A DNA stretch of 40,949 nucleotides from an uncultured Paraprevotella sp. (GTDB taxonomy: Bacteria > Bacteroidota > Bacteroidia > Bacteroidales > Bacteroidaceae), in contig CALULT010000025.1 of assembly GCA_944321565.1 (NCBI GenBank), positions 1-40,949 of the forward strand, given 5' to 3'. This document shows positions 11,676-38,455 of this stretch, piece by piece. Position 1 is the stretch's first letter, and the number at the start of each line of letters is the position of its first letter. Below the pieces are notes generated by a model. The model was not told the origin of the DNA. It did no database searches and saw only the letters and a list, made by a program, of their open reading frames with translations. A program made the position numbers and the translations under genes.

Positions 11676-13445
11676 TCAGTACCCGATTTGTCCCTGCCAG
11701 CTCATGTACCACGAGTGCGGGTCGTCAAGCGGACGGGCGATGAGTCCTTGCATGACTCCCGTGGCATCCGCGCCTCGGCGTGCATAGATTTTGTCGGCCA
11801 GATAGGACGGGTCGCCGCGCCGCATGGCTACGCGCATGAGGTCGCCGAAGCGGTGTCCTTCGAAGGCCGTTTCAAGTGCGCATTCGTCAATGATGAGGTC
11901 TTCCACGCGGGTAATCTGCCATTGCAGTGTGTCGGCCGTGCCTTCCGGTGCCACGGGGAAAGCGTATTCCGGGTTGAATTCCGCCCAACCCGACCCACGC
12001 GAGTGGATGCCGATGGTGTTCACGTCGCTTGCGTTGGGCGTGATGCGGCGTACGATGTAGCGGCTTTCCGGAAAGCTGAAGCCCTGCGCATAGGCACTGT
12101 CGGCCGCCGTGTGGCAGTAGGGCAGCACGTCGGAACGCACGATGGAGTCGTTCACCCCTGTGCTCAGGATGGCAAAGGCAAAACGTGGATAACCCGCGCG
12201 ATTTAACGCTTCGGCCAAGCGCAGATAGACCATTGCGCGGCGATAGACATGCACATTGGACGAATTGTTTTTCGAAATCGCCTGGTAAGGTTTGTAGGCA
12301 TGGTCGTAGTTGATGCTTGATTCGTTATACACGCTGTAAAGGCGCAGGTCGCCGGGATATTCTGTGGCATCGGCGGGAACGAGTGTCACTTCGTGTTCCG
12401 TGGAGTAATTGCAGTAGGTCTGCTTACGTGAAAGTTCCAGCAAAGCTTCTGAAGGCGCCACGGGGGCATCGTACTCGTTGTCGTGCGTGGAGCTGAAGAT
12501 GTTGAGCAATTGGCTGTAGTTCGGGTCGGCGATGTCCGTAGGACAGGGAATGAGCGTGATGAGCTCACCGTCATTGGAATAGCCTTCGGAGGTGACCAGC
12601 GAGGAGAAACCATCGCTCCATGAACTGTAGCGGTCGTCGTTGCGTCCCCACGCGGCGGCGGAGGTGGTCACAGGGTAGGCCGAAAATTCACCGTTGCGTT
12701 CCGAGATGTAGCGGTAGTACCATGAGGCCGCTTCTTGGTAACGGTTGGCATACAGGCAGAGGTCACCCAAGAGTAGCTTCGTGGGGATGAAAATCAGCCG
12801 GTTGTCCGTGCTGAGTCCGGTGAAAAGCGGGATGTTTTCGTCCGCGATGGGAGTGAGGTCGTTGATGAAGTAATCGCAAATTTCAGACAGTTCTACCCAG
12901 GGATAGTCGCGTTCCAGGTCGGCCGAGGAGAGTACCGGTTCCGTGACGAAAGGCACACGGCCGTAGGCCAGGACGAGTTGCAGGTAAGTCCACGCGCGGA
13001 ACGTCTTGGCAGCCGCGAATTCGCGCATGAAAACCATTTCGTTGCGGTTGTCGCGCATAGCCGTGTCTGCGTTGGCAATGAAGTAATTGCAGTTGTTGAT
13101 GACGGCATAGTAGTCGCGCGGTTGGTTATAGATGTTGCTGCTGTCCGAGAGGTTGAAGAGCGAGAGGTTTCGCAGGTCGGCGGGGGTATTCACGCCCAAA
13201 TCGACCAGGTCGCCGCGTAATTCGCCCAGCAGGACAGTACGGTCGGCAATGGCCTGCATCTTTTGCAGGATACCCATCATGGAGTAAACCGTGTCGGTAG
13301 GCTGGTTCAGGTGCCCACCTTCGGCATATACCAGTTGGTTTGAGTCTTGTTCGAAAAAGTCCTCGCATCCCGTGAAGGTGGCCGCACAGGAAGCGGCCGC
13401 CATGCACAGGCCCAGGAACGCATATTTGTTTGTTTTCATATTCAT
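11676..13445 (-). CDS. SusD/RagB-family nutrient-binding outer-membrane lipoprotein
   Basis: A 589-residue lipoprotein that would cap the SusC-like channel encoded just upstream and bind the glycan. The signal peptide ends in a lipobox at TFTGC, followed by the acidic CEDFFEQD, an export signal typical of Bacteroidetes surface lipoproteins. Early helices (YSMMGILQKMQAIADRTVLL, GELRGDLVD, YYAVINNCNYFIANAD) and the middle FRAWTYLQLVLAYGRVPFVT are the TPR-like SusD core. The C-terminal part with IDECALETAFEGHRFGDLMR is characteristic. ATG 13445 or the Met two codons later (13439) may start. It follows SusC by 21 nt and precedes the operon terminator. Confidence 0.95.
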   Translation of the reverse strand: MNMKTNKYAFLGLCMAAASCAATFTGCEDFFEQDSNQLVYAEGGHLNQPTDTVYSMMGILQKMQAIADRTVLLGELRGDLVDLGVNTPADLRNLSLFNLSDSSNIYNQPRDYYAVINNCNYFIANADTAMRDNRNEMVFMREFAAAKTFRAWTYLQLVLAYGRVPFVTEPVLSSADLERDYPWVELSEICDYFINDLTPIADENIPLFTGLSTDNRLIFIPTKLLLGDLCLYANRYQEAASWYYRYISERNGEFSAYPVTTSAAAWGRNDDRYSSWSDGFSSLVTSEGYSNDGELITLIPCPTDIADPNYSQLLNIFSSTHDNEYDAPVAPSEALLELSRKQTYCNYSTEHEVTLVPADATEYPGDLRLYSVYNESSINYDHAYKPYQAISKNNSSNVHVYRRAMVYLRLAEALNRAGYPRFAFAILSTGVNDSIVRSDVLPYCHTAADSAYAQGFSFPESRYIVRRITPNASDVNTIGIHSRGSGWAEFNPEYAFPVAPEGTADTLQWQITRVEDLIIDECALETAFEGHRFGDLMRVAMRRGDPSYLADKIYARRGADATGVMQGLIARPLDDPHSWYMSWQGQIGY

Positions 13446-13466
13446 TATTGTTTTTATGGTGGGGGA

Positions 13467-16400
13467 TTAGAGGTTTATCTTGATGCCGGCCATGATGCTG
13501 CGCCCTTGCGGCAGGCTGCCCGCATCGATACCTTGTCCTAGTACGGAAGACGTGGCCGCGAACTCGGGGTCGCCGCCCAAGTAGCGGGTGGTGGTGAAGA
13601 GATTCTGCCCCTGCACCCAGAACTGCAACCCCTGCAGGAAGGTGGTCGAAAGGGGCAGGTCGTAGCTCAGCGTGACGGTTTTCAGGCGCAGGTAGCTGCC
13701 ATCCTCAATCCAGCGGTCGCTGAAGCGGCTGTTGCCCATCGGGTCTTGGAATGTGGCGCGGGGGATGTCGGTGGCTTGTCCTTCCACCTGCCAGCGGCGG
13801 GCGAGGGCGGTGGTCTGGTTCATGAAGCGGCTGCCCGACTCCAATTGGCGGCGGGTATAATTATACACGTCGTTTCCCAAGGAGTAGTTGAACACCACGT
13901 CAAGCCGCAGCCGTTTCCATTGGAGTGCAGTTGAGATGTTGCCGTAGATGTCGGGATTGGGGTCACCGATGACGGTACGGTCGGCTTCGTCAATCACGTG
14001 GTCGCCGTTGAGGTCCACGAAGTGCATGTCTCCGGCTTCGAAGGGCACGGTGCCGTCACCAGTGGAGTTGGGAATGCCAAGGCCGGCAGCCTGTGCCTCC
14101 TCTGTGGTGGCGAACACGCCTTGTGTGCGGTAGCCGTAGAACACGCCCACGGGCTGGCCCACGGCCGTACGGATTGTGGCGTCATACATTTCTGTGTCCA
14201 TGAACGTGGCTCCGTCGGCCAAGGCGGTCACTTTGTTCTTGTAATGCCCGAGGCTGGCACCCACTTGCCATTGCCAATCGCTGCGGGCGAGCAGGATGGC
14301 TGTGGCACCGAAGTCCACGCCGTGGTTCTCCAGCTTGCCGTCGTTGCCCCACGTCTGTTCCAGACCGCTCAGGAACGACATTTCCTGGAGCATGAGCAGG
14401 TGGTCGGTGAAGCTGTGGAAATAGTTCAGGCGCAGGGCCAGACGGCCGGAGAGGAAGTTGGCGTCTAGTCCCACGTTATAGCGGCGGGTGGTTTCCCACT
14501 GTATCTTTTCGTTGCCGATGCCGGCGATAGCCAAGCCGGAGCCCAAGTTCATGTAGTCGGTGCTGGCAAAATAAGACCGGGCTGCATAATAGGGCAGGTC
14601 ATCGTTGCCGCTCACGTCCACGCCGGCCGTGAGGCGCAGGTAGTCGAGTCCCTTCACGCCGGCCAACCACGGTTCGTTCGTCAGCACCCACGAGAGCTGC
14701 GCTCCCGGGAACACGCCCCATTTCACACCGCACATCTTCAGGCCTTGGTCCGTGTCGTGGCCGAAGCGCGAGGAACCTTCCATGGCCATTGTGGCCTGCA
14801 GGAAATAGCGGTCCTTGAAGCTGTATTCACCTTGGAGGTAATACGTCAGCGAGTTCCATTTGTCGTTGGTGCCCGCCGTGGCGGCGTTGGCCAGGGAGGA
14901 AGAAATGAAGGGGGTCTTGTCGTTACCCGTGTTGTAGCCCACTTGTGTGTTGAGCTGATAGGTATCCCACTGCATGCGGAATCCGCCGAAGAGTTTCACG
15001 TCATGGGCGTTGAAACGCCGAATCCATTCCACGCGCGTGTCGCTCATGATGGAGTTCTGCTTGGAGAAGAGCGAACGCGACTCGTTTTGCCGGTATCCGC
15101 CAACGCTGGCCACGTAGTAGTCGGGTACGCCATTGAGCGGGATATAGTATTTCTCGTTCGTGTTGGTCAGCACGTAGCTGAAGTGTTCGCTGAGCGAAAG
15201 GTAACGGTTGAACTTGAAGCGGGGCTTGACGGCGATGCTGAGCATGGAGTTCTCAAAGTGGTTCTTGTTCTGTGCGTCACCGTAGTCGAGGATGGCCAAC
15301 GGGTTACCCAGCTTCCAGTTGTAGTTGTCGTATCCCGACAAAGCTTCATCGAGGTAAGTCTCGTCGGTGATGTCAAGGTGGTTGGTGTAAATTTGCCCGC
15401 CAGAAAAGGTGTAGGGACTGAGCATGGGCGATTTGGCGTAGGCCAGGAATGAGGGCGATGTCGGTGTGCCCTCCTCGTAGCTTTCCGGGGCGGTATCGTC
15501 GCGCAGGTTGCGCGTGATGTTGGAGAAGGCGGCATCAAACCGCATGTCGAGCTTGCTGCCCAGGTTGATGTCCGAGTTGAAGCGGATGTTGAGGCGGTTC
15601 ATGTTGTTCTTCTCCAAAGTGGATTGTGCGCCGGTGTATCCCAGCGATAGGTTGTACTGTGCCACGTCATCGCCGCCCTGCACGTTGATGCCATAGTCCT
15701 GGGTGAAAGCCGCGCGATAGACATCCTTTTTCCAGTCTGTGTTCTTGTTGTACTTCTCGCGGTAGTAGTTAGAAGGCGAGTCGTCCAGGAAGTTGAAGTC
15801 GCGGATGGTCGTGTTGGTGGTCTTGAGCAGTTCGCTGGCATAGGTGCGGTAACCCTTGGCGTCCATCATGTCGTAGTAGCGGGGCTCGAAGGTCACGCCT
15901 GCCGAGACGGAAGCCGTGATGCGGGTGGCCATGCTGCGGCTGCGTTTCGTGTCGATGAGGATTACTCCGTTGGCTCCTTTCGCGCCATAGAGTGCGGTGC
16001 CGGTACGTAGCACGGTGACTTTCTCTATGTCGGCGGGATTGATGGATGTCAGGATATTATTATAGAATCCCGCGTGGAGCATTTCCCGACCGTATTGCTG
16101 GTCAAGGGGTACACCGTCAATGACGATGAGGGGTTGGGCATTGGCATTGATGGAATTCAGGCCGTTCATCGTCATCACCGCGCCAATGCCTGGTGTGCCG
16201 TTGCGCATGACGGTGCGGATGCTCGCACCCAGTTCGCGCTGGATGTTTTCCTCTACGGACAATGCGGAGGAATAATCCGGGCTGTAGGCCTGTCGCATGT
16301 TGGCGGCTTGCGAAAGGTCGTCGTACATCGCGTCGAGGGTGGCGGGGTACATGACCACGTCCGCCTGTTCTTCCGTGCGTTTCAGTCCGGCCCGCACAGG

Positions 16401-16715
16401 GTTGCAGTCGGGGGCGGTGATGTCGATGGCCGTGGCGAAGACGGGTACTGCCAGCTCGAAGCTGCCATCGTCTTCGGTCAGCGTACTGTATCCATCGATG
16501 CCATGGGAGCTGACCAATGCTCCGCCTTTAGGCGTGTGCCCGGCGGCATCCACCACGCGTCCGCGGATGGTGCGTGTTTCCACCTTATTTTTTGTGCGCA
16601 AGGCGTTCTCGGCCTTCGCGTGTTCCCCGTCGGCACTTGTCGTGTCGGCTTCCTGTGCCTGCAGGGCCATGCTGCATGCCATCATGGCCGATATGCAATA
16701 TATTTTGTATTTCAT
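13467..16715 (-). CDS. SusC/RagA-family TonB-dependent outer-membrane transporter
   Basis: A 1082-residue import channel partner of the adjacent SusD. I placed the start at 16715 because it gives a proper signal peptide (MKYKIYCISAMMACSMALQA). The open frame extends 87 codons further, into the preceding gene, with unlikely residues. After the signal come a carboxypeptidase-like regulatory domain (RTIRGRVVDAAGHTPKGGAL), a plug domain (NAQPLIVIDGVPLDQQYGRE, then ADIEKVTVLRTGTALYGAKG and ANGVILIDTK) and the long beta-barrel. The barrel ends in GSLPQGRSIMAGIKINL. It starts 19 nt after the FAS1 protein stop. Its plug is preceded by an unusual non-repetitive stretch (residues 120-170) rather than the standard short linker. 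Substrate is not predictable. Confidence 0.95.
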   Translation of the reverse strand: MKYKIYCISAMMACSMALQAQEADTTSADGEHAKAENALRTKNKVETRTIRGRVVDAAGHTPKGGALVSSHGIDGYSTLTEDDGSFELAVPVFATAIDITAPDCNPVRAGLKRTEEQADVVMYPATLDAMYDDLSQAANMRQAYSPDYSSALSVEENIQRELGASIRTVMRNGTPGIGAVMTMNGLNSINANAQPLIVIDGVPLDQQYGREMLHAGFYNNILTSINPADIEKVTVLRTGTALYGAKGANGVILIDTKRSRSMATRITASVSAGVTFEPRYYDMMDAKGYRTYASELLKTTNTTIRDFNFLDDSPSNYYREKYNKNTDWKKDVYRAAFTQDYGINVQGGDDVAQYNLSLGYTGAQSTLEKNNMNRLNIRFNSDINLGSKLDMRFDAAFSNITRNLRDDTAPESYEEGTPTSPSFLAYAKSPMLSPYTFSGGQIYTNHLDITDETYLDEALSGYDNYNWKLGNPLAILDYGDAQNKNHFENSMLSIAVKPRFKFNRYLSLSEHFSYVLTNTNEKYYIPLNGVPDYYVASVGGYRQNESRSLFSKQNSIMSDTRVEWIRRFNAHDVKLFGGFRMQWDTYQLNTQVGYNTGNDKTPFISSSLANAATAGTNDKWNSLTYYLQGEYSFKDRYFLQATMAMEGSSRFGHDTDQGLKMCGVKWGVFPGAQLSWVLTNEPWLAGVKGLDYLRLTAGVDVSGNDDLPYYAARSYFASTDYMNLGSGLAIAGIGNEKIQWETTRRYNVGLDANFLSGRLALRLNYFHSFTDHLLMLQEMSFLSGLEQTWGNDGKLENHGVDFGATAILLARSDWQWQVGASLGHYKNKVTALADGATFMDTEMYDATIRTAVGQPVGVFYGYRTQGVFATTEEAQAAGLGIPNSTGDGTVPFEAGDMHFVDLNGDHVIDEADRTVIGDPNPDIYGNISTALQWKRLRLDVVFNYSLGNDVYNYTRRQLESGSRFMNQTTALARRWQVEGQATDIPRATFQDPMGNSRFSDRWIEDGSYLRLKTVTLSYDLPLSTTFLQGLQFWVQGQNLFTTTRYLGGDPEFAATSSVLGQGIDAGSLPQGRSIMAGIKINL

Positions 16716-16734
16716 CTTGGGCTGTGATTTTTTG

Positions 16735-18387
16735 TTATTCGTTAGGGGTTCCGGTCTCGTCTTCTTCGTGCGGCTTGAGGATGATGCAGTCCAGCCGCAG
16801 TGTGCGGGTGTATTGCTTGGCCGAGCCGCGGTTGGCTTCCACCGTGAGGCGCACCTGTGGCTCGTTTGTGTTGTAGCTACAGGTGGGAATCTTATAGTCG
16901 CTGGCCACCAGGATGGTGTCCACCACATTCGGTCGTGTTTCATAGACCTTGCTGCCTTCGTCGTTGACCATGTCAATGGGGTTCACTAGTCGTCCGTCTT
17001 GGTCGTTGTATTGGATGGAGAATTCCACGCGTAACGGAAGAGTGTCGGTGGCCAGGGTGTCGGCAGCCGTGGCCGGTGCGAAGACGGCATAGATATCATA
17101 ACCGATGTTGGAGAGCACGTTCGGGATAGTGTAGCGGATGAGAGGGGTCACGATGATGTTGAGCGGTTCGATTTCCACGAAGGTGTTGCCCGACACTTTT
17201 CCATAGAACGGGTTGGTCGTGGCGACGGAACGGATGGAAACCGGTTCTTTACATTTGGCCACGCTGTCCTGGTAGAAGGAGTTTTCGGCTTCTATTTTGA
17301 TCTCCTGGAAGAAGGTCGTGCGCTTGTCTATGTTCCATTGGTCGGTCTTGAACATGCGCCCGTTGCTGCAGGTCGTTTCGCTGACGCCATCAAGCACCCC
17401 GCCGGGGGCGTAGGGTGAAAGGCACTTGTAGTAGCGATAGTTCCATTTGCTGTAGGTCGTGGAGAGGAGCGAGTCCTGTGGCGAGGGTTGCTGGTTCATG
17501 TTGAAGATGGCACCTTGCAGGATGGCCTTGTGAGCCATGATGTCCTGCATCGAATCGCGCTTCGGGACAGTGTTGTCGTAGTTATAGTATGTGCGATATT
17601 CTTCGTACAGCCGTTTCCATTCCTTATCGACGGGTACGACCATCCAATAGTTACTGTCCTCGCGGTTGATGAGTCCCAGCTCGTTGAACATGACGTTGCT
17701 CAGGTTCATCACAGAGTCCAGGTAAACAGTCTTTCCGTCCACGATTTCTCCGGGAACGCTTTGGCTTGCATTGAATTCATATACGTTGAACTTGTCGAAG
17801 AACGCAGCCACGCTGTCCAACTCATTGTCTATTCCGAAGCTTTCCGACACATTGGCAAAATAGGGGAGTTTGTCACCTACGGTGAAAAGTATGCCGTTGC
17901 GATAGAGCTGGTTGGACGTGAGGCATTTCACGCCGTTTATGGTTCCGTCGGCCAGATAGCCATATTTCCCGTTCAACATGGTCATCTGCACGGAATCCCC
18001 CGTGGGCAGTGCCGATTGGTTGTACATGGCAATGTGGTTCTGCAGGAACTGCTTGATGATGGAATTGTCGTTGTCCTTGATTTTCCGCGCCTTTTGTTCG
18101 TTATAGGCGGCCGTGAGGCTGTCTATGTCGCTCAGGCTCAGGCAATCATTGGTTGGTGCGAATACGGTGAACATTTGGTCGCCGTTGAATTGGTAATTGT
18201 AGCCCGTGTTTTCGGCCAGCTGCACGAAGTTCGAGAGGTTTGCATCCGCCTTCATGGCTTCCCACAACGATTCCGGACTAGCCAGCGGGTTGGTTCTTCC
18301 ATAGTGTTCGTCCCATTCATCCTGACACGCGGCCATCATGGGTAGCAGTGCGGCTAGCGTGTATTTCATAATGGTTGTTCTTTTCAT
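16735..18387 (-). CDS. Fasciclin (FAS1) domain surface lipoprotein
   Basis: A 550-residue lipoprotein with lipobox MMAAC followed by the acidic QDEWDEHYG. The first FAS1 domain spans roughly residues 40-190, with the signature FTVFAPTNDCLSLS and the distal RNGILFTVGDKLPYFANV. A second FAS1-like fold is suggested by YWMVVPVDKEWKRLYEEY. The C-terminal 150 residues are beta-rich (YTIPNVLSNIGYDIYAVFAP, VRLTVEANRGSAKQYTRTLR) and end in EEDETGTPNE. FAS1 domains mediate adhesion in many organisms. Here the position before susC suggests a surface glycan-binding role, which is inference. ATG 18387 or the Met at 18369 may start. It is in one operon with its neighbours. Confidence 0.88.
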   Translation of the reverse strand: MKRTTIMKYTLAALLPMMAACQDEWDEHYGRTNPLASPESLWEAMKADANLSNFVQLAENTGYNYQFNGDQMFTVFAPTNDCLSLSDIDSLTAAYNEQKARKIKDNDNSIIKQFLQNHIAMYNQSALPTGDSVQMTMLNGKYGYLADGTINGVKCLTSNQLYRNGILFTVGDKLPYFANVSESFGIDNELDSVAAFFDKFNVYEFNASQSVPGEIVDGKTVYLDSVMNLSNVMFNELGLINREDSNYWMVVPVDKEWKRLYEEYRTYYNYDNTVPKRDSMQDIMAHKAILQGAIFNMNQQPSPQDSLLSTTYSKWNYRYYKCLSPYAPGGVLDGVSETTCSNGRMFKTDQWNIDKRTTFFQEIKIEAENSFYQDSVAKCKEPVSIRSVATTNPFYGKVSGNTFVEIEPLNIIVTPLIRYTIPNVLSNIGYDIYAVFAPATAADTLATDTLPLRVEFSIQYNDQDGRLVNPIDMVNDEGSKVYETRPNVVDTILVASDYKIPTCSYNTNEPQVRLTVEANRGSAKQYTRTLRLDCIILKPHEEDETGTPNE

Positions 18388-18416
18388 ATTGCTGAATGTT
18401 TTTTATTAATGCTATT

Positions 18417-20435: not shown

Positions 20436-20455
20436 ACTTTTTTATTAATGCTATT

Positions 20456-22477: not shown

Positions 22478-22506
22478 TTTCTTGTCGGTTTAGAGAATGA
22501 TTCTTT

Positions 22507-24225
22507 TTATTCAATCGTGGTGCTTTCACCGATGGCGAAGGCTGGGTTTTGCACAAGGTATGGGTTCACATCCAGTTCGTTTTCGTTGTATGGCCAATAA
22601 ATGGCGTCCATTTTGGAAAGCTTGCTTTCCACGGCCGTGATGTTCGTGGTGTATTTCCGTGTGACTTGGTTCACGAGGTATTCCGTGTTGCCGTCGCGGC
22701 GGGCGCGGCGCACGAGGTCGAACCACCGCTTGCCTTCGAACATGAGTTCGCGTTGGCGCTCTTCCATGACGAGATTCTGCATGGTGGCTTTCGTGGTGTA
22801 CATGTTGCTGTCGAGCTTCTGCATGCCGGTGCGGTCGCAGTTGGAGCGCAGGTTCACGGAGTTGACCAGTTTGAAAGCTTGCGAGATTTCCGAGGGCTTC
22901 GTGGCAGATTCCTCGGGAGCCATTTGCGCGAGGGCTTCGGCTTTCAGGAGCATGATGTCGGTCAGGCGGTAAACAATCCAGTTGGCCTTGCAGTACTTTT
23001 CCCGATAGGGCGTTCCGTGGGTGACTCCGCCGGTCAGGTCGTCCGAAGTGGCTTTCGTAAGGTCGATGGAAGCCCCGTCGGTGGTGTATTTGTTGATGCG
23101 GAAGTCTGTGTCGCTGTTGCTTTGCACATTTTCGTAGGCGCGTGTGTCATACATGCTGGTGAACACCTGGAAAGACTTGTCCGACACGTCCGACCCGATA
23201 AAGTCGGCGGGACGGTAAAGCCCCGGAAAGGTGACATCATTGCCGTAGCAGTAGCTTACGGCGCCGTTCGAAAGCATGTTGTCGTTGTCTTTCATGTAAG
23301 TCAGTTCGAAGATGCTTTCGCTGCTGTTGCCGTTGACGAAAATCTGTGTGTAGGCACTGCCGTAGGTCGTGCGGGTGGAGTTGGCGTCGCTAATGAGCGG
23401 ATAGCCTTCCACCAGTTCGTCCACCACGCCGGTCACGATGCCGCCGTACCGCTGGTATTTCTCGTTATACTTGTCCATCTTTGACTGAATGACCAGGTCG
23501 GCATAATAGACGCATTTGGCATAGTCTTCTTTCCAAAGGTACATTTCGCAAAGCATGGCGTGGATGGCTTCCTGTGTGATGCGCCCGGTCTGATAGAGCG
23601 GGTCAGTTTCCGGATAGATTTTCACGGCATCGTTTTGTATGGACTCGAGGTCGGCGATGAGGGCATTGAGAATGTCTTCGAACTTGCTGGCAGGCAAGGC
23701 CATCGTTTGGTTGTCGTCCATGTAGGCTTCCGTGGTGTAAGGCACGTCGCGGAAGGCACGGATGAGGTAGAAGTAGCACAGCGAGCGCAGGGCCGTGGCT
23801 TCGGCAATGGTGGCGCGTAGTGCACTTTGCGTGTAATCGGGCGACTTTTGCGCCACTTGCGGGGCGTACTGGATGATGAGGTTACAGCTGTTGATGACGC
23901 TGTAGAACTTGTCCCATTTGGTAAAGCCGTTGTTTTCGCGCAGGTTTTCCTGGAAGATGTTTGAGTAGTCCACGTTGCCGTTCACATTGTTGCCGGCCAC
24001 GATGTTGTCCGAGCGCACTTCACCCCACACCATGAGGCGCTCTACGAAGTCACGGCTCTGCATCGTGGAGTAGCAGCCGCTGATCATGTTGTCCACATCG
24101 CTTTTCTCGTTCCAAAAGTTTTCCAATACGATGTCGTTGAGGGGCTTGAGGTTCAGGAAATCCTCGCAACCCACCAGGGGGCATGCGGCCAGCAGAGCCG
24201 TGGCGAATATCTTGTATGCTTTCAT
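22507..24225 (-). CDS. SusD/RagB-family nutrient-binding outer-membrane lipoprotein
   Basis: A 572-residue lipoprotein, partner of the SusC encoded upstream. The signal peptide ends in the lipobox PLVGC, then EDFLNLKPLNDIVLENFWNE, a classical SusD opening in which KPLND and ENFW are typical. Core helices follow (DVDNMISGCYSTMQSRDFVE, FYSVINSCNLIIQYAPQVAQ, ALRSLCYFYLIRAFRDVPYT). The C-terminal MEERQRELMFEGKRWFDLVR motif is diagnostic of the family. It differs clearly from the second SusD of the operon, so the two pairs are not a recent duplication. Spacing is 27 nt after SusC and 29 nt before the FAS1 genes. Confidence 0.96.
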   Translation of the reverse strand: MKAYKIFATALLAACPLVGCEDFLNLKPLNDIVLENFWNEKSDVDNMISGCYSTMQSRDFVERLMVWGEVRSDNIVAGNNVNGNVDYSNIFQENLRENNGFTKWDKFYSVINSCNLIIQYAPQVAQKSPDYTQSALRATIAEATALRSLCYFYLIRAFRDVPYTTEAYMDDNQTMALPASKFEDILNALIADLESIQNDAVKIYPETDPLYQTGRITQEAIHAMLCEMYLWKEDYAKCVYYADLVIQSKMDKYNEKYQRYGGIVTGVVDELVEGYPLISDANSTRTTYGSAYTQIFVNGNSSESIFELTYMKDNDNMLSNGAVSYCYGNDVTFPGLYRPADFIGSDVSDKSFQVFTSMYDTRAYENVQSNSDTDFRINKYTTDGASIDLTKATSDDLTGGVTHGTPYREKYCKANWIVYRLTDIMLLKAEALAQMAPEESATKPSEISQAFKLVNSVNLRSNCDRTGMQKLDSNMYTTKATMQNLVMEERQRELMFEGKRWFDLVRRARRDGNTEYLVNQVTRKYTTNITAVESKLSKMDAIYWPYNENELDVNPYLVQNPAFAIGESTTIE

Positions 24226-24252
24226 TTCTTTTTCTCTTTTTGCGGTTAAGGG

Positions 24253-27200
24253 TTAAAAATCCACGGTCACGCCGAGGGTGAATGATTTTGCGCGCGGGGT
24301 CTGGCCTTCGTCTTTGGCCACGCCGGTGCTGCCGTAGGAAATTTCCGGATCCACGCCCTTGTATTTGGTCAGGCAGAACAGGTTGTTGGCACTGAGGTAG
24401 GCGCGGACATCTTTGAGGCGGATGGCCCGTGCGGCCTTGGCAGGCAACGAGTAGGAGAGCTGCAGGTAGTTAAGACGCAGGAAGGAACCATCCTCCACGA
24501 AGCGGTCGCTGATGAGGGTATTGTAGTTGGACACGGCACCGTTGCTCATCGTGCCGTACATGGCACGCGGGATGGATGTCACGTCGCCTTCCTTGCGCCA
24601 GCGGTAGTTCACGGCCTGGCTTTGGTTGTTGTTCGTCAGCATGGATTCCGCGTCGAGTCGCGCCAAGTTGAGGATTTTGTTGCCCACGCGGTAGTTGAAC
24701 TGGGCGTTCAGACGCCAACGGTCGTAGGTCAGCGTGAGGCCGAAACCGCCGGTGAGCTTGGGCAGGGAGCTGCCAAGATAGACGATGTCCAGCTCATTGA
24801 TGTTGCCGTCATGGTTGATGTCCTCATATATGGCATCGCCCCCTTTGAAGTCGTAATCGAGCGACCTGTTATCTTCGTTGGAGAAGCAATATTTCATGCG
24901 CTTGGGTTCGCCCTTGCTGTCGTAGATGACCTGGCCGTCGGCACTGAAAGCCACCGGTGCTGTCTTACCATCGGCGAGAAACTGCGCACGTTCGGTCTCA
25001 TTCATGTCGGCGAAGGTGTCATAATGGTATTGGTAAACGCCTTTGTAGCGGAAACCGTAAATCGCACCGAAGGGGTTGTTGAGCTGTACACGTTCCAGCA
25101 CGTTGCGGTTGGCTTGCGTGAATTCCTTGTTGAGCGAGGCCAATACGGTAGGATCCATTTCGAGGATTTCATTCTTGTTGTTGCCGAACGAGGCGTTGAA
25201 GTCGGCGCTGAACTTGCCGGCATGGATGACGCGGTTGGTGGTGATGTTGAATTCCCAACCCAAGTTGCGCAGTTTGCCCACGTTCTTGTAGGCCAGCGAG
25301 GAGAATCCTGTGGAAGAAGGGATGCCCACGTTGCCCATCAGCATGCCGTCGGTGGTGGAGTGGTACCATTCCACTGTCAGCCGCAGGCGGTCGTCGAGGA
25401 AGCCGAAGTCCATGCCCACGTCGTAGGTCGATTTCACTTCCCAACGCAGGCTGGTGAGCCGGATGTTGAGCTGGTTCATGGCGTTCATGTCAATGTAGGT
25501 GTCTCCGCTGCCGTACTTGCTCTCGTAGAGGTAGTCTTGGGTTGGCTGGCTGCCCACGCGGCCCCAGCTGGGGCGGATGGAGAGCATGGAGAGCCAATCG
25601 CGGCTCCATTTCATCCACGACTCGTCAATGATGTTCCAGCGGGCCGACACGGCGGGGAACACGCCCCAACGCTTGCCCGGGCCGAATTTCGTGCTGCCGT
25701 CGGCGCGCAGCGAGAAGTCGAGCATGTAGCGGCTCTTGTAAGCGTAGTGGGCCGAGAATGTATAGTAGATGGAACGCCATTGGGAGTATCCTGTGGAGAG
25801 CGAGGAAATCTGCCCGCCGGCATCAGGGCTTTCAATGCCGCCCGAAGGTAGGCGCATTGATTCGGTGTCCTGCTGGTTGCTGGTGCCCGAGATGAGGTTG
25901 AAGCGCACCATGGCCATCATGGAGTGGTCTTTGTTGGCGAAATAGGGCGTGAGCGTGAGTGTCTGCTTGGTGTCGAAGGCCACGCTCTTGCGGCTGTTCG
26001 TGTATCCGATGTTGACATCGTTGTTCCAATTCACGGTTTTCAGCTCTTGGGGATAGAACTTGTCGTTGTATTCGTTGAACACATTCATGTTCACACGTCC
26101 GTTCCAACGCAGTTGCCATTCGTCTTCCGATGTGCCCAACAGGTCGTACTGGATTTCCAGTTCAGGCGTGATGTCGTAGGTCTTTTGGTCGTATTTGGCC
26201 AATTTCGCACTGGCCACGGGATTCACCAGGTCTTTTTGGTTGCCGTTGAACACCGAAGAGGCAGACTGTAGCATCTCGTAGTAGCGGCCCGTCGATCGTC
26301 CTGTGTGCGGGTCTTCTTCGAAGATGCCCATGTTCGGCATCTTCTTGTAGGCGATGGCCAGCAGGTCGTCGTAGTTCTTTTGGTTGTCCGTGTAGGTCAT
26401 GGCGAAGTTGGTGGACACCTTGATGCGGTCGCTCACGTAGTAGTCCAAGGCCAGTCGTGTGGAGAAGCGGTCCAGCTGTTGTTCGATGATGGAACCCGTC
26501 TCGTGGTCGTATCCACCGGAGATGCGGAACGTGGCCTTTTCACCACCGCCGGTGACGGAGATGTTGTGGTTCTGTCGCCATCCCCATTGGGTCACGGCAT
26601 CCTGCCAGTCGGTGTTGTTGTTGTATTGTTCATATTCCGAGAACGTGGGGTCGTAGTTCAGTTCAGGGATGTTGGATGCCGTGGAACTCTGTTCGGGGTT
26701 GAAGTAGCTTTCTTTGAGCAACATGGTGTATTCGTCGCCCGTGAGCATTTTGTAGCCTTCGGGCTGGTAAGTTCCCGTCAGGCGGAAAGAGTAGCTTACC
26801 TGGGGGGCGCCGCGCTTACCTCGCTTGGTCTTGATTTCGATGACACCGTTCGCGCCTTGCGAACCGTAGATGGCCGTGGCGGCCGCGTCCTTCAGCACGG
26901 TGATTTCCTCAATGTCTTCAGGGTTGATGTTCAACAGTTGGGCGAAAGACTCGTCATTGGCCGTGTTCACGTCAAAGGTGCTCATGTCCACGTTCCACGT
27001 GTTGCCGTTCACCACGATGAGCGGGTTTTGGTTGGTCAGCGTACTGATGGACGATGTACCGCGCAGGCGCATCGTCGTGCCGCTGCCCAGGTTACCTGAG
27101 TTGGAGATGATGTCCAGTCCGGCAATACGCCCTTGCAGGGCTTCGTCGATGGTGTTGATGCCCAATCCTTCGAATTCCTTGGTGGAGATGGTCTGCGAGG

Positions 27201-27597
27201 CGAAGCTGATTTCGCGTTCGGGGATGGCGAGGCCGCCGCCGCTGATGCGTTTCTTTTCCGTCACGGAGACTTCCTTTAGCGTCCGGCTGGCCGAGGCTAG
27301 GGTAATGTCATAATTCCGTTTGTTGATGGGGAGAGTCTGTGTGGTATAGCCCATGTAGCTCACCTTGAGCTTATTCTTCGTGTTCTTGACTCTCATGGTG
27401 AAGTGCCCGTTCATGTCGGTGACCGTGGCGTTGATGGCGCGCCCGGTGGCATCTACTTCGCACACCGTGGCTCCGATGAGCGTCTCGACATCGTCTCTCA
27501 CCGTACCACTGATGCTGCTGATTTGGGCCTGTGCCGGGATGGCTAAGAGGCAAAGCCATAGGAAAGCGACCCATATTCGTTTCATATTGTTTTCCAT
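24253..27597 (-). CDS. SusC/RagA-family TonB-dependent outer-membrane transporter
   Basis: A 1114-residue outer-membrane importer. The signal peptide is MKRIWVAFLWLCLLAIPAQA if the Met at 27585 is used; ATG 27597 adds only four residues. A carboxypeptidase-like domain follows (ISGTVRDDVETLIGATVCEV), then a plug domain (QGRIAGLDIISNSGNLGSGT, TTMRLRGTSSIS, NPLIVVNG, EITVLKDAAATAIYGSQGAN, the classical SusC signature). The barrel ends in AKSFTLGVTVDF, with the terminal aromatic residue used in barrel assembly. It starts 46 nt after the first FAS1 protein and is the typical channel for the following SusD. Confidence 0.97.
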   Translation of the reverse strand: MENNMKRIWVAFLWLCLLAIPAQAQISSISGTVRDDVETLIGATVCEVDATGRAINATVTDMNGHFTMRVKNTKNKLKVSYMGYTTQTLPINKRNYDITLASASRTLKEVSVTEKKRISGGGLAIPEREISFASQTISTKEFEGLGINTIDEALQGRIAGLDIISNSGNLGSGTTMRLRGTSSISTLTNQNPLIVVNGNTWNVDMSTFDVNTANDESFAQLLNINPEDIEEITVLKDAAATAIYGSQGANGVIEIKTKRGKRGAPQVSYSFRLTGTYQPEGYKMLTGDEYTMLLKESYFNPEQSSTASNIPELNYDPTFSEYEQYNNNTDWQDAVTQWGWRQNHNISVTGGGEKATFRISGGYDHETGSIIEQQLDRFSTRLALDYYVSDRIKVSTNFAMTYTDNQKNYDDLLAIAYKKMPNMGIFEEDPHTGRSTGRYYEMLQSASSVFNGNQKDLVNPVASAKLAKYDQKTYDITPELEIQYDLLGTSEDEWQLRWNGRVNMNVFNEYNDKFYPQELKTVNWNNDVNIGYTNSRKSVAFDTKQTLTLTPYFANKDHSMMAMVRFNLISGTSNQQDTESMRLPSGGIESPDAGGQISSLSTGYSQWRSIYYTFSAHYAYKSRYMLDFSLRADGSTKFGPGKRWGVFPAVSARWNIIDESWMKWSRDWLSMLSIRPSWGRVGSQPTQDYLYESKYGSGDTYIDMNAMNQLNIRLTSLRWEVKSTYDVGMDFGFLDDRLRLTVEWYHSTTDGMLMGNVGIPSSTGFSSLAYKNVGKLRNLGWEFNITTNRVIHAGKFSADFNASFGNNKNEILEMDPTVLASLNKEFTQANRNVLERVQLNNPFGAIYGFRYKGVYQYHYDTFADMNETERAQFLADGKTAPVAFSADGQVIYDSKGEPKRMKYCFSNEDNRSLDYDFKGGDAIYEDINHDGNINELDIVYLGSSLPKLTGGFGLTLTYDRWRLNAQFNYRVGNKILNLARLDAESMLTNNNQSQAVNYRWRKEGDVTSIPRAMYGTMSNGAVSNYNTLISDRFVEDGSFLRLNYLQLSYSLPAKAARAIRLKDVRAYLSANNLFCLTKYKGVDPEISYGSTGVAKDEGQTPRAKSFTLGVTVDF

Positions 27598-27643
27598 AAT
27601 GTCCGTGTGTTTGTCCGGTTCTTTTTATTTATTTTTTTCTCCT

Positions 27644-30199
27644 TCAATATTCTATCTTTTCCAATTGGCTCTTTTCGTAGAACAATGCACCGTCTATTTG
27701 GTGTACAACGGCCGATGACGAAGTATAAATGGTGTTCGCCCCGGTGTTGAAGGCATACTCGCGGCACACATTGTTATAAAGCCCTTCAGTGGTCACCACC
27801 TTGCGTTTGTTTCCGAGTTGGTCGGTGAGTTCCATGCCGTCTGTGCCAATCTTGTTCACTTCAATGCTGTAGAAACGGCGGTTGGCCGGGTTCAGCATGC
27901 CGGTTTCATATTTCAGCCCGCTTTCCGTGTTGTCACCGATAAAGACGGAATTGTCTTGGATGTGGTAACGCAGGAAGTTCACGATGCGGTTCTTGATTTT
28001 GTAGCGCAACCCTTCGTCGGTGGCGGCATCGAAGTCTGTCCAATAAGGCAAGATGCCTTCTTCGTGCAATTTTTCGATGGCTTCGTTCGTGGGGACATAC
28101 ACCGTATAATTATAGGTGTCAAAGAGGGTGATGTTTTGGTCCACGCACTCGTATTTCTCGTCGATGAGGGCTGTCAGCAGGCTGTATTCCGTGGAGTCCG
28201 GGTCGCCGCCGCTGAGCAGTTCCAGGAAGCGGGCGTATTCCGGGTGTTCGCTTAATGTCGTATAGACCGATTTGCGGCTGGGCATCAGCAGGCGGTCTTC
28301 AATGACGTAAGCCTTTCCGTTGCCGCTCTCCGTTTGGTCGTAAATCGTGGTCACCTCAACCGGATTGTTTTGTTCCACTTGCAGCCCACCGGAAATCATG
28401 ACACCGTTCTGTCCGCCGCGGGTCACCTTGATGATGCTCCCGCCCTTGGTCTTGTAATAAGTGTGTCCGTCTTCGATGTCGCCCACCACGATGGCGTTTT
28501 CCATGATGTCGCTCAGGCGGTTCATGATGGGGTCGTTGTCTTTGCCCGAAGCAGCATTGGCGTATGCGCTTTCATAGTGTTCGGGGTCTAGGATTTGGCC
28601 GGTGGCCATGTCATATTGGTATTTGTCCGCGCGCACGTTTTGCCGTTCTTCGTCCCAAAAGAATTGGTAAAGCGTGGAAGTGCCTTCACCGTAGGACACG
28701 GGGTCGATATACTGCAGGAAGGCGTCGTTGGTGGGCAGCACCAGGCTGTAGCGCGTGTCCATGGAGTTGAGGTAGGCATCCAGCCCCAGTTGTTCGATAG
28801 CCCAATAGACCACGCCCATCGTGGTGTTGCGGCGCACCAGCGCGGGGAACGACACGGAGCGGTAGGCAGCCGGGGCGAACACTTTGTTGGTGAGATACAC
28901 TACACCGTTGCAACCCATGAAGCAACTGTCCACGTCTTCGGGTTTCACGCCCATGCTGACCTTGGCGTCGTTCGTGATGCTTTCGAACTTAGAAGGCACG
29001 TGGTCCACGAACGAGGTAATCATGTTCACGTTGATGAGCTTGTTCAACACGTTCACATCCACTTCGGCCAGTGAGGGATACACATCCTGCAGTGCCCGGC
29101 CTTCGCCATTCCACCATCTTTCCACCGCGTCGTTGTTGGGCACGAGCATGGCTCCGCAGTCATATTCCAACGTCTTGCCATAGGCGTTGGTGTACATATA
29201 TTGGTTCCATCCCGGGTCGAAGGTCAGATAACCTGGAACTTGGACTTCCGGGTTGTCGGGGTCTTGCAGGTTGGAGCCGCCATTGGCTTGTTGTGCAAAG
29301 TAGCGCAACACGAAGACTGAGTCCTGTGTGCCGTAGAGGCGGTTATAGTTTTGCGTGGCGTTTGCGTCATAGATGGGTGCGCTATAGAGGTCGAGCAGTT
29401 CCGCCCATCGGCTCATGACGGGATGTTTGTGGATGATTTCAGCCATATTGTCGGCCGGGGTGATGACTTGTTCCACTTTTTGCACGTAGCCGTTTTTGCA
29501 GGTGATATCCGTAGGGGTGAGCACCTTGATGCCGTTCACCCATGACTCGGAAGCCGAGGTGGCATGGCCGTTGGTCAGTTTGGCCAAGTCATTATCGGTA
29601 ATCTTATTGGTTTTCATGAAACGCGGCAGGAGGTGTATCATGGGTTGGCTGGTGTTGTCGCGCATGAGTAGCACTCCATCTTTGCGCCCGCGGACTTTAT
29701 CCCAATATTGGGTGGCCGGCATGTCGGCGGGCAGGATGCGGGCTACGGAGTCATATACGCTGAGGGCCACTTCGCGGCGCATGCACATGCCCTCTTGGGG
29801 TGGATTGCCCGGCACGTTCGACAACAGTTCAATCAGGTAGGCATTGTTGACCATGGAACTGTTGAGTAAGATTTTTTTCTGCGCGAGCGAAAGCTCGTCG
29901 TAAGATTTTACGTTCCAACTGTTGCTTTTGAAGAAGGCGTCAAAAGCGGCATCATCGGCAGCGAAAATGGTCTTGCTTCCCGTCATGTTCAGCACGTCCG
30001 TCATGTCCAAATCATTGATGAGGCGGGTCAGGCATCCATAATTGCCTTGTTCTTGCAGATAGCCATAGATGGAATTGTTCAGCCATGAGGGTTGTCCCAC
30101 CAGCTCATCGTCTTGGCATGAGGTCAGTCCTGTGGCGGCCAACGTCATGGCCACCGCGAAAGTTTTTATCTTAAAACGATAACAAAGACTGCGTTTCAT
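27644..30199 (-). CDS. Large multi-FAS1 surface lipoprotein, first gene of the susCD operon
   Basis: An 851-residue lipoprotein. I chose ATG 30199 because it starts a signal peptide leading to the lipobox GLTSC (Cys 28), followed by the acidic QDDELVG. The open frame extends 47 codons further with poor residues. Four FAS1-like signatures occur in order: KTIFAADDAAFDAFF (about 76-90), AMLVPNNDAVERWW, SLVLPTNDAFLQYIDP and TVYVPTNEAIEKLHEEG. The C-terminus ends YTSSSAVVHQIDGALFYEKS. It is one of four FAS1 proteins in the locus and the only one with four modules. The location directly before susC suggests a function with the importer; binding of the glycan is inference. A weak promoter lies upstream. 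Confidence 0.9.
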   Translation of the reverse strand: MKRSLCYRFKIKTFAVAMTLAATGLTSCQDDELVGQPSWLNNSIYGYLQEQGNYGCLTRLINDLDMTDVLNMTGSKTIFAADDAAFDAFFKSNSWNVKSYDELSLAQKKILLNSSMVNNAYLIELLSNVPGNPPQEGMCMRREVALSVYDSVARILPADMPATQYWDKVRGRKDGVLLMRDNTSQPMIHLLPRFMKTNKITDNDLAKLTNGHATSASESWVNGIKVLTPTDITCKNGYVQKVEQVITPADNMAEIIHKHPVMSRWAELLDLYSAPIYDANATQNYNRLYGTQDSVFVLRYFAQQANGGSNLQDPDNPEVQVPGYLTFDPGWNQYMYTNAYGKTLEYDCGAMLVPNNDAVERWWNGEGRALQDVYPSLAEVDVNVLNKLINVNMITSFVDHVPSKFESITNDAKVSMGVKPEDVDSCFMGCNGVVYLTNKVFAPAAYRSVSFPALVRRNTTMGVVYWAIEQLGLDAYLNSMDTRYSLVLPTNDAFLQYIDPVSYGEGTSTLYQFFWDEERQNVRADKYQYDMATGQILDPEHYESAYANAASGKDNDPIMNRLSDIMENAIVVGDIEDGHTYYKTKGGSIIKVTRGGQNGVMISGGLQVEQNNPVEVTTIYDQTESGNGKAYVIEDRLLMPSRKSVYTTLSEHPEYARFLELLSGGDPDSTEYSLLTALIDEKYECVDQNITLFDTYNYTVYVPTNEAIEKLHEEGILPYWTDFDAATDEGLRYKIKNRIVNFLRYHIQDNSVFIGDNTESGLKYETGMLNPANRRFYSIEVNKIGTDGMELTDQLGNKRKVVTTEGLYNNVCREYAFNTGANTIYTSSSAVVHQIDGALFYEKSQLEKIEY

Positions 30200-32054: not shown

Positions 32055-32186
32055 TTTCAGAGCCTGGAACACCCAGTTTCAGAGCCTGGAACACTCAGTT
32101 TCAAAGCCTGAAACACCCAGTTCCAAACGCTTGGAACACCCAGTTTCAAGGCCTGGAACACCCAGTTCCAAACGCTTGGAACATTC
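32055..32186. repeat. Six-unit minisatellite of 22-23 bp, each unit with dyad symmetry
   Basis: Consecutive units start at 32055, 32077, 32099, 32121, 32144 and 32166. The consensus is TTTCAAAGCCTGGAACACCCAG, alternating with TTCCAAACGCTTGGAA versions, which are near-perfect palindromes. There are no unique spacers, so this is not CRISPR. It lies upstream of the GH43 gene, between that gene and repeat elements. Confidence 0.85.
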
Positions 32187-32340: not shown

Positions 32341-32522
32341 AAACTGTCCCGCCTCGCAGGGGGACGAGCCCCGAAGGGGCGGAGGGGGTCTTACGCCCAC
32401 GGGAACAACACCGGACGCATCTGCGGATAACATAAACGGGTCGGAAAAAGAGGAAAGTCACTCTTGTGCATGGGAAACCCCTCCGGCCCTGCGGGCCACC
32501 TCCCCTACAAGGCGGAGGAGTT
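32341..32522. repeat. MITE-like palindromic element, copy 1
   Basis: The left arm 32341-32400 begins AAACTGTCCCGCCTCGCAGG. The right arm 32474-32522 ends in CTACAAGGCGGAGGAGTT. The two arms are imperfect inverted repeats of each other (GGGGCGGAGGGGG against CCCCTCCGGCCC). The left arm matches 33018-33077 with about four differences in 60 bases. Its downstream flank (32524-32556) matches 5924-5957. Confidence 0.75.
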
Positions 32523-32612
32523 TTGCCTCCGGACGGACAAACCTTTGTTGCGATGGATCTCAAATCTGTCGCAGCATATCAGAGGGCTAGCATGAAACCG
32601 TTTCCCCACTGA

Positions 32613-33017: not shown

Positions 33018-33159
33018 AAACTGTCCCGCCTCGTAGGGGGACGAGCCCCAAAGGGGCGGAGGGGGTCTCACGTCCACAAAGACATACTTTATGTGTGTGT
33101 CCGTGGGTATGAAACCCCTCAGACCCGTTGGGCCAGTTCCCCTACAAGGCGGAGCAGTT
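33018..33159. repeat. MITE-like palindromic element, copy 2
   Basis: The left arm 33018-33077 and right arm 33111-33159 correspond to those of copy 1, with a shorter middle. Both copies lie in the same orientation, flanking the Rpn-type remnant. Confidence 0.75.
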
Positions 33160-38296: not shown

Positions 38297-38328
38297 GTTT
38301 CGTTTATTTAATAATGTTTCTACGTTTG

Positions 38329-38336
38329 CAAATTTA
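38329..38336 (-). promoter_or_regulatory. -7 element upstream of GH31
   Basis: TAAATTTG on the minus strand fits TAnnTTTG exactly, 32 nt before ATG 38296. A TTTG at 38356-38353 is only 16 nt away, shorter than the usual 19-21. Confidence 0.5.
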
Positions 38337-38455
38337 ATCACCTTCCCGCAGTCAAAGTCCTTTTATGTCGCAAAATCTTTTTTTTGTGTCGGAAGCGGGT
38401 GGGGTTGGGGTGGTTTTCATCATATTTTTCGGTGTGCGTGGCGCAGAATTAAAGC

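What the first reader, a model, noticed from the sequence alone, without database searches (positions are those of the whole stretch)
11676..30199. FAS1-SusC-SusD modules with four fasciclin lipoproteins in place of the usual surface glycan-binding proteins
In transcription order the operon reads FAS1(x4 modules), SusC, SusD, FAS1, FAS1, FAS1, SusC, SusD. Each FAS1 set precedes a SusC, and all are lipoproteins with acidic residues after the lipid cysteine, so all are likely at the cell surface with the importers. FAS1 domains are known adhesion folds; using them as the binding partners of a Sus-type importer would be a distinct design. No endo-acting enzyme is in the operon itself.
Basis: partly seen in the sequence, partly recalled or inferred. 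Interest (0 to 1): 0.72.

Follow-up and report, generated by a model that had tools for sequence, protein, structure and literature searches.

The report
Fasciclin proteins in bacterial glycan importers
A bacterial operon for taking up what are probably plant-fibre sugars combines two importers with lipoproteins built from an adhesion-type fold (fasciclin), and the same seven-gene set in the same order recurs in many related bacteria, so it looks like a widespread but little-described way of catching polysaccharides.

Summary
The minus-strand genes at 30199-11676 are FAS1-A, SusC1, SusD1, FAS1-B, FAS1-B', FAS1-C, SusC2, SusD2, 19-46 nt apart: one case of a conserved seven-gene unit, A-SusC1-SusD1-B-C-SusC2-SusD2. 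The same genome has two more copies. The unit is complete in 50 of 59 module-type loci that I annotated and in three genomes outside Bacteroidales. Most high-scoring 'classic' fasciclins have no SusCD beside them (16 of 17 control regions). FAS1-B homologues occur in 84 of 121 genomes of the GTDB family. In Paraprevotella xylaniphila and Hallella seregens a copy lies in a xylan locus beside the genome's only GH10 match. Models of B and C show two fasciclin domains plus a C-terminal beta-sandwich; the non-fasciclin fold matches include carbohydrate-binding modules (weak). I read it as a plant-glycan, probably xylan, importer whose fasciclin lipoproteins work like surface glycan-binding proteins, fasciclin pair as spacer and C-terminal domain as probable binder. 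Binding, surface location and complex formation are inferred. Eight literature searches found no description of the unit.

The parts
30303..31901 (-). GH43 with GH43_C2 domain (beta-xylosidase/arabinofuranosidase type); possible first gene of the transcript
   Evidence: Pfam GH43 144.1 bits, GH43_C2 135.2 bits; 103 nt before FAS1-A; a GH43_C2 gene is also upstream of A in L012 and in Hallella seregens L185
31928..31935 (-). TACTTTTG, possible Bacteroidetes -7 promoter element (TAnnTTTG) 26 nt before the GH43 ATG
   Evidence: 21 such matches in the window against 15.2 expected (10 of 100 shuffles as many), so weak alone; the consensus is recalled
27644..30199 (-). FAS1-A: 851-aa lipoprotein, tandem FAS1 units (first and last clear, two middle ones weak)
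   Evidence: lipobox then CQDDE; not modelled
24253..27597 (-). SusC1, TonB-dependent importer
   Evidence: TIGR04056 715.8 bits; SusC1 clade
22507..24225 (-). SusD1 lipoprotein
   Evidence: SusD_RagB 92.1 bits
20456..22477 (-). FAS1-B: two FAS1 domains plus C-terminal beta-rich domain
   Evidence: lipobox then CSDEP
20486..21235 (-). C-terminal domain of FAS1-B (residues 415-664), no Pfam family
18417..20435 (-). FAS1-B', 92% identical duplicate of FAS1-B
16735..18387 (-). FAS1-C: two FAS1 domains plus C-terminal beta-rich domain
   Evidence: lipobox then CQDEW
16762..17319 (-). C-terminal domain of FAS1-C (residues 357-542), no Pfam family
13467..16715 (-). SusC2, TonB-dependent importer (start ATG 16715)
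   Evidence: TIGR04056 561.3 bits; start by comparison with paralogues
11676..13445 (-). SusD2 lipoprotein
   Evidence: SusD_RagB 35.4 bits; aligns with SusD2 of the two paralogous copies at 41-42%
33306..34829 (-). Neighbour: GH43 with CBM6
34850..38341 (-). Neighbour: GH31

Best explanation
This is the outer-membrane part of a polysaccharide utilisation locus for a plant cell-wall glycan, most likely a xylan or arabinoxylan. Two SusCD importers and three classes of FAS1 lipoprotein are made together from one operon. FAS1-B and FAS1-C work like surface glycan-binding proteins: the lipidated N-terminus holds them at the outer membrane beside SusC, the FAS1 pair is a spacer, and the C-terminal beta-sandwich catches the polymer. 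FAS1-A, built from FAS1 units, is a longer scaffold or second capture arm tied to SusC1/SusD1. Enzymes of the locus (GH43 here; GH10, GH67, GH30 and an esterase in relatives) cut the captured chains, and SusCD imports the oligosaccharides by the pedal-bin mechanism. Shown: gene order, families, lipoprotein signals, conservation as a unit, fold models, enzyme neighbours. Inferred: co-transcription, surface exposure, assembly, glycan binding, substrate.
For: Conserved order: 33 of 36 loci (32 complete, L039 ends after SusC2; L021 and L036 are contigs under 5 kb, L045 has no module); 17 of 20 chosen Bacteroidales regions show it whole or apparently split over two contigs; three genomes of the class outside the order. 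Gaps median 12-33 nt. Two paralogous copies in the same genome. Reciprocal link: module SusC2s form one clade and module SusC1s one clade but for L110, itself a FAS1-SusCD contig; the five other full SusCs of the genome fall outside. In 20 genomes without the unit the best SusC1-profile score is 332 bits, against 633 or more in the modules with A other than the contig-split L080/L081. Distances of all seven genes correlate (r 0.92-0.98, 44 modules). Lipid Cys invariant. Folds: FAS1 like TGFBIp/periostin; further matches to MiXBM 7ehg, CBM35 2w47, CBM22 4xup/1dyo. Enzymes: GH10-GH43-GH67 before the C1 copy and the P. xylaniphila copy; GH43_C2, module, GH30, esterase, MFS_2, GH10, GH43, HTCS in H. 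seregens; the single GH10 match of each of three named genomes lies 3.4-5.1 kb from a module. [quoted passage not shown]
Against: No binding, localisation or expression data. The C-terminal domains match no Pfam CBM and no relevant PDB chain by sequence, and B and C C-termini are not homologous by profile comparison. Foldseek CBM matches are weak (E 2e-6 to 1e-3, rmsd 5.6-10 A, low TM for the query); the lists shown (50 of 1138 and 50 of 1411) also hold Cry toxins, laminin and APC/C subunits, and the query range is not printed, so their assignment to the C-terminus is inferred. Two or more acidic residues within four after the Cys: B 35/37, A 19/32, C only 11/33; SusD1 17/52 and SusD2 22/46 by the same count, so this does not settle surface export. 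28 of 40 upstream neighbours scanned (my sum, if GH43, GH67 and GH31 do not share members) are none of these, so xylan is not shown for every copy. The C17 copy has no CAZyme among ten flanking ORFs scanned. SusD diverges nearly as much as FAS1, so divergence alone does not mark FAS1 as the binder.
Confidence: 0.66

Rival explanations
1. The FAS1 lipoproteins are scaffold or assembly parts of a SusCD supercomplex (for instance bridging SusC1 and SusC2) and do not bind glycan themselves.
For: Strict gene order and co-inheritance. In B the most conserved stretch of the whole protein is the segment just after the lipid Cys (rank 1 of 662 windows; in A rank 8 of 840, in C only 39 of 539), as a docking segment might be. 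A consists of FAS1 units as far as detected.
Against: B and C carry an extra C-terminal beta-rich domain, and their fold matches include carbohydrate-binding modules. The FAS1 proteins diverge more than SusC (mean identity 0.31-0.37 against 0.46-0.51), as ligand-facing parts would, though SusD does so too (0.37-0.42).
Confidence: 0.17
2. The FAS1 proteins are adhesins for host matrix, mucus or other cells that share an operon with an importer.
For: FAS1 is a known adhesion fold (recalled); nearest solved relatives are periostin and TGFBIp.
Against: Constant pairing with two SusC clades and plant-polymer enzymes beside several copies. High-scoring classic FAS1 proteins mostly lack SusCD neighbours.
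Confidence: 0.1
3. The imported ligand is not a glycan, and the FAS1 domains bind something else, such as a pigment, lipid or peptide.
For: A carotenoid-binding FAS1 protein appears among the fold matches (8c18); SusCD-like RagAB imports peptides (recalled).
Against: GH10, GH43, GH67, GH30, esterase and sugar-symporter genes beside several copies.
Confidence: 0.05
4. Chance neighbourhood or assembly artefact.
For: None beyond draft-genome fragmentation.
Against: Complete in 50 of 59 module-type loci over many families, including named cultured strains.
Confidence: 0.01

Closest known systems
Levan utilisome of Bacteroides thetaiotaomicron (SusCD + GH + SGBP; PMC7618045, passages seen)
   Same: SusCD core with extra surface lipoproteins from one locus; [quoted passage not shown]
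   Different: Ig-like domains, not FAS1; one SusCD pair and one SGBP, against two SusCD pairs and three or four FAS1 lipoproteins; its GH is part of the complex
Tandem-SusCD xylan PULs of gut Bacteroidetes (PUL 43 of Bacteroides xylanisolvens, PMC4855328, passages seen; Prevotella bryantii Xus cluster, recalled)
   Same: Two tandem SusCD pairs with GH10/GH43 enzymes and a hybrid two-component regulator
   Different: No FAS1 protein is mentioned in the passages seen; whether their genes of unknown function are FAS1 was not tested here
Cellulose/hemicellulose-like PUL of Gramella portivictoriae (PMC4891872, section 19 read)
   Same: Figure legend lists a FAS1 domain protein in a PUL
   Different: GH5/GH9/GH26 locus; no role or repeated unit described in that section; gene order not seen (figure not held)
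TGFBIp / periostin (FAS1 arrays)
   Same: FAS1 fold; top sequence and fold matches
   Different: Animal matrix proteins (recalled); no lipoprotein anchor, no importer
CBM35 / CBM22 / MiXBM binding modules
   Same: Weak fold matches, assigned by me to the C-terminal domains of B and C; MiXBM belongs to a xanthan lyase (PMC10881899, passage seen)
   Different: No sequence relationship detected

Membership tests
Sus-type polysaccharide utilisation locus | SusC homologue next to SusD homologue | tested here: met
   two pairs, both SusCs over the TIGR04056 cut-off, both SusDs over the SusD_RagB cut-off
Sus-type polysaccharide utilisation locus | Carbohydrate-active enzymes in the locus | tested here: met
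   GH43_C2 103 nt upstream; GH43-CBM6 and GH31 nearby
Sus-type polysaccharide utilisation locus | Regulator in the locus | tested here: inconclusive
   No HTCS, AraC or two-component gene among the 22 window ORFs scanned with Pfam; a sigma-70-family gene lies at 1666-2253, 9.4 kb from SusD2. Regulators lie beside the P. xylaniphila and H. seregens copies
Sus-type polysaccharide utilisation locus | Induction by and growth on a glycan | not testable with these tools
   No expression data
FAS1 (fasciclin) superfamily | Pfam PF02469 over gathering score | tested here: met
   54.8, 66.9, 66.6, 37.8 against 22 bits
FAS1 (fasciclin) superfamily | FAS1 fold | tested here: met
   AlphaFold models of B (pLDDT 84.0) and C (88.1); Foldseek top matches TGFBIp and periostin; A and B' not modelled
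Surface glycan-binding protein (SGBP) | Surface-exposed lipoprotein of a PUL | tested here: inconclusive
   Lipid Cys invariant; polar-plus-acidic export motif clear in B, partial in A, weak in C; consensus from PMC5080379 (passages)
Surface glycan-binding protein (SGBP) | Encoded with SusCD | tested here: met
Surface glycan-binding protein (SGBP) | Binds the glycan of the locus | not testable with these tools
   No binding data
Known CBM families (CBM6/22/35) | Sequence profile match of the C-terminal domain | tested here: not met
   No CBM family among the matches of 33 B and 31 C C-termini at E 0.1; one C member matches F5/8 type C at E 0.026

The most novel reading that the evidence does not exclude
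The seven genes encode one heteromeric outer-membrane supercomplex: two different SusCD importers held together by periostin-like FAS1 arms whose C-terminal domains are two new carbohydrate-binding families. This would be a second, FAS1-based design of utilisome, widespread in Prevotella-like gut and rumen bacteria.
Probability: 0.3. Interest if true: 0.85.

Novelty: new variant of a known kind. Interest (0 to 1): 0.62.

Why it matters
Six of the eleven SusCs over the family cut-off in this genome belong to this unit, and Paraprevotella clara and P. xylaniphila each have 15 B-class hits (some partial). If B and C bind glycans, two large uncharacterised families become candidate carbohydrate-binding proteins, and the way a major group of gut and rumen fibre degraders captures xylan can be tested directly in cultured strains. 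It would also give FAS1 proteins a bacterial role tied to nutrient import rather than adhesion.

Tried and rejected
Mucin or host adhesion as the main role: where neighbours are recognisable enzymes they are plant-polymer enzymes. FAS1 in general linked to SusCD: rejected. In 17 regions around high-scoring FAS1 proteins (80 bits or more, ORFs of 168-587 aa) only L110, a 5.4-kb contig, had SusCD beside it; L099 and L100 end at the FAS1 gene, so only one side was seen, and a very divergent SusC would escape my profiles. Of 20 regions of the phylum draw, picked by me from the hits, 3 had the full module, 1 a variant (L117), 3 a FAS1 gene close to a SusCD pair (L118, L119, L125), and 13 no FAS1 beside SusCD (L132 has a SusC-like piece at the edge of the stretch).

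Homology of the B and C C-terminal domains to each other or to a known CBM by profile: none. Sigma-70 promoter and terminator scan downstream of SusD2: nothing useful. TAnnTTTG scan: little above chance. Literature: searches gave no description of the unit; the library lacks most subscription journals, and PULDB was not searched.

Selection and dropped rows to tell: the 20 regions were picked by me as large, low-scoring FAS1 ORFs with spaced hits, and not all G098 loci were fetched; the 36 loci were found through FAS1-B itself. The 59-locus count is therefore of module-type loci, not of all FAS1 genes. Of the 59 (36 + 20 + window, L008, L010): 43 exact at first; L078, L087, L091, L093, L094 and L095 after profile refinement (in L078 the C slot scores only 41.8 bits and the second SusD scores best on the SusD1 profile); and L010, whose SusD2 lies on L011: 50. 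L021, L036, L039, L080, L081 and L088 are cut by contig or fetched-stretch ends; L090 is a variant; L045 and L082 lack the module. Of the 26 FAS1-bearing Bacteroidales genomes, 14 have the unit by my reading (12 whole or split over contigs, G071 cut, G096 variant), each in a different family of that draw. Of 41 same-strand upstream neighbours 40 went to Pfam (L008 left out there, scanned: MFS_1); of 30 downstream ones 25 went, plus one of L011, with L084, L085, L088, L095 and the window's ffh left out. L012 (near-identical to the window) was left out of the alignments behind, and L043 out of the A alignment. Of the 20 genomes, 18 have no PF02469 hit and two (G200, G203) only no FAS1-B profile hit.

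Full report
WHAT IS THERE. On the minus strand, 30199 down to 11676, the window holds FAS1-A (27644-30199), SusC1 (24253-27597), SusD1 (22507-24225), FAS1-B (20456-22477), FAS1-B' (18417-20435), FAS1-C (16735-18387), SusC2 (13467-16715) and SusD2 (11676-13445). The gaps between them are 46, 27, 29, 20, 29, 19 and 21 nt. Family assignments are over the curated cut-offs. A GH43 with the GH43_C2 domain (30303-31901) precedes FAS1-A by 103 nt on the same strand, with a TACTTTTG element 26 nt before its start (the motif is common in the window, so this is a hint only). Further upstream lie GH43-CBM6 and GH31. Downstream, 223 nt away, is the SRP54-type gene. No HTCS, AraC or two-component gene was found among the 22 window ORFs scanned.

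SAME UNIT IN THE SAME GENOME. PF02469 gives seven hits at E 0.01 in the window's genome, all in three loci: this one, contig C17 and contig C1. Both others have A-SusC1-SusD1-B-C-SusC2-SusD2. Between paralogues SusC identity is 47-63%, SusD 39-46%, FAS1 31-45% (the recent B/B' pair left out). Six of eleven SusCs over the cut-off are in these units. The C1 copy is preceded by GH10, GH43 and GH67, a glucuronoxylan set. The C17 copy has no CAZyme among ten flanking ORFs scanned.

SAME UNIT ELSEWHERE. A profile of FAS1-B found 36 loci in titled genome records: Paraprevotella, Prevotella, Hallella and others. In 33 of 36 the neighbours follow the unit (L039 ends after SusC2). L021 and L036 are contigs under 5 kb with SusC1-SusD1-B; L045 has B without SusCD. 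In a draw of 119 Bacteroidales genomes, 26 have a fasciclin hit. I fetched 20 regions of the large, low-scoring type and 17 of the high-scoring type. Of the 20, seventeen show the module, counting L080 and L081, apparently two contig halves of one locus. L088 is cut, L090 is a variant, L082 has none. Of the 17 controls one (L110) has SusCD beside a FAS1. In a draw of 80 Bacteroidota genomes, 34 have a fasciclin hit. Of 20 regions fetched, L114, L115 and L116 carry all seven genes in order, L117 is a variant, and L118, L119 and L125 have a FAS1 gene close to SusCD. A FAS1-B profile matches 84 of 121 genomes of the window's GTDB family, in 15 of 22 genera. Gaps within modules are short (medians 12-33 nt).

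CO-INHERITANCE. In a tree of 62 SusCs, module SusC2s form one clade (support 98) and module SusC1s one clade apart from L110, itself a FAS1-SusCD contig. The variants L117 and L090 are sister to each clade, and the five other full SusCs of the window's genome fall outside (quick method, SH-aLRT only, long branches among the 'other' rows). In 20 genomes without the unit the best match to the SusC1 profile is 332 bits, against 633 or more in modules with A, leaving out the contig-split L080/L081; the two searches used different programs on the same three seed sequences. Over 44 complete modules the pairwise distances of all seven genes correlate at r 0.92-0.98, and nearest neighbours by FAS1 and by SusC agree in 28-32 of 44. 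This shows the unit is inherited together; it does not separate that from species kinship.

PROTEIN ANATOMY. The lipid Cys is invariant in 37 B, 33 C and 32 A proteins. The published export signal is a polar or positive residue followed by acidic ones: SDDDD in B. fragilis, SDDFE in F. johnsoniae (PMC5080379, passages). The window's four proteins fit (CQDDE, CSDEP, CSDEP, CQDEW). Across homologues, two or more acidic residues within four occur in 35/37 B, 19/32 A and 11/33 C; by the same count 17/52 SusD1, 22/46 SusD2 and 36/88 of all predicted lipoproteins of the sampled regions. So the count is distinctive for B only. In B the most conserved window of the whole protein is the segment next to the Cys (rank 1 of 662; A rank 8 of 840; C rank 39 of 539), which would suit docking. 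AlphaFold models of B (pLDDT 84.0, pTM 0.80) and C (88.1, 0.82) show two FAS1 units and a C-terminal beta-rich domain (domain limits are my reading of the printed secondary structure). Foldseek puts TGFBIp and periostin first for both. Among the other matches are MiXBM 7ehg (B 2e-6 to 1e-5, C 3e-6 to 2e-5), CBM35 2w47 and 2w1w for B, and CBM22 4xup, 1dyo and 1h6y, CBM27 1of4 and CBM32-type modules for C. The tool does not print the query range; I assign these to the C-termini because FAS1 is not a beta-sandwich. TM-scores over the query are low and rmsd high, and the same lists hold Cry toxins and APC/C subunits. By sequence the C-termini match no CBM family, no relevant PDB chain, and not each other. 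They are therefore CBM-like in fold at most, not members of a CBM family. The PDB chains listed for A, B and C by sequence are named periostin, TGFBIp, phycobilisome and NDH-1 parts, AstaP and a fasciclin-like protein: no structure of this family.

SUBSTRATE. In P. xylaniphila YIT 11841 the order is response regulator, histidine kinase, sugar symporter, GH10, GH43, GH67, A, SusC1, SusD1, B, C, SusC2, SusD2, then a large protein without Pfam match. In H. seregens ATCC 51272 it is GH43_C2, A to SusD2, GH30, esterase (SASA), symporter, GH10, GH43, HTCS (same calls). P. clara, P. xylaniphila and H. seregens each have one GH10 match, 3.4, 3.4 and 5.1 kb from the edge of a module (the two Paraprevotella are not independent). 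In the window the enzyme before A is again a GH43_C2, as in H. seregens. In a wider tally, GH43 occurs in 6 and GH67 in 5 of 40 upstream genes scanned, while 26 downstream genes include GH88, rhamnosidase, GH3, GH2 and pectinesterase (25 of 33 families shown). Copies may therefore differ in target; plant polymers are the common theme where enzymes are recognised.

MECHANISM. [quoted passage not shown] I propose the same working principle with FAS1 pairs as spacers. It works like an SGBP system; that B and C are SGBPs is not shown.

NOVELTY. Eight literature searches found no description of the unit. One figure legend names a FAS1 protein in a hemicellulose-like PUL of Gramella (PMC4891872, section 19). 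The library is incomplete. I rate it a new variant of a known kind.

Noticed in passing
window 32055-32183: Tandem repeat of 22/45-bp units (5.8 copies of the 22-mer) in the 1.4-kb gap between the two GH43 genes.
   Followed up: no
window about 32480-32525 and 33110-33155: Two similar GC-rich intergenic blocks that look, by eye, like copies of a dispersed repeat element.
   Followed up: no
window 3113-5781: Restriction-modification pair: AccI-type endonuclease (4681-5781) and Eco57I-type methylase (3113-4681).
   Followed up: no
window 1666-2253: Sigma-70-family (region 2 and 4) gene, 9.4 kb from the operon's end; no evidence of a link.
   Followed up: no
window 33306-34829, 34850-38341, 38588-40582: The three proteins end in similar G(V/I)YI(R/K)-x-x-KKF tails, reminiscent of type IX secretion C-terminal signals (recalled, not tested).
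   Followed up: no
L047: Record titled Roseburia sp. carries a full module with SusCD; probably a mislabelled or misbinned Bacteroidales contig.
   Followed up: no
L011:2872-6582 and homologues in L028, L029, L030, L035, L037, L041: A large protein (1236 aa in the window's genome) of unknown function follows SusD2 in several copies; no Pfam match over cut-off.
   Followed up: partly
L090 and L117: Variant unit FAS1(B-like)-SusC-SusD-FAS1-SusC-SusD, whose SusCs are sister to SusC1 and SusC2.
   Followed up: partly
L045: A FAS1-B homologue without SusCD neighbours, near a GH31-like gene.
   Followed up: no
L088: An extra FAS1-B gene directly after SusD2.
   Followed up: no
G098 (L091-L094, L096) and P. 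xylaniphila (G318): Some genomes hold many copies: G098 has 24 fasciclin hits, G318 15 B-class hits.
   Followed up: partly
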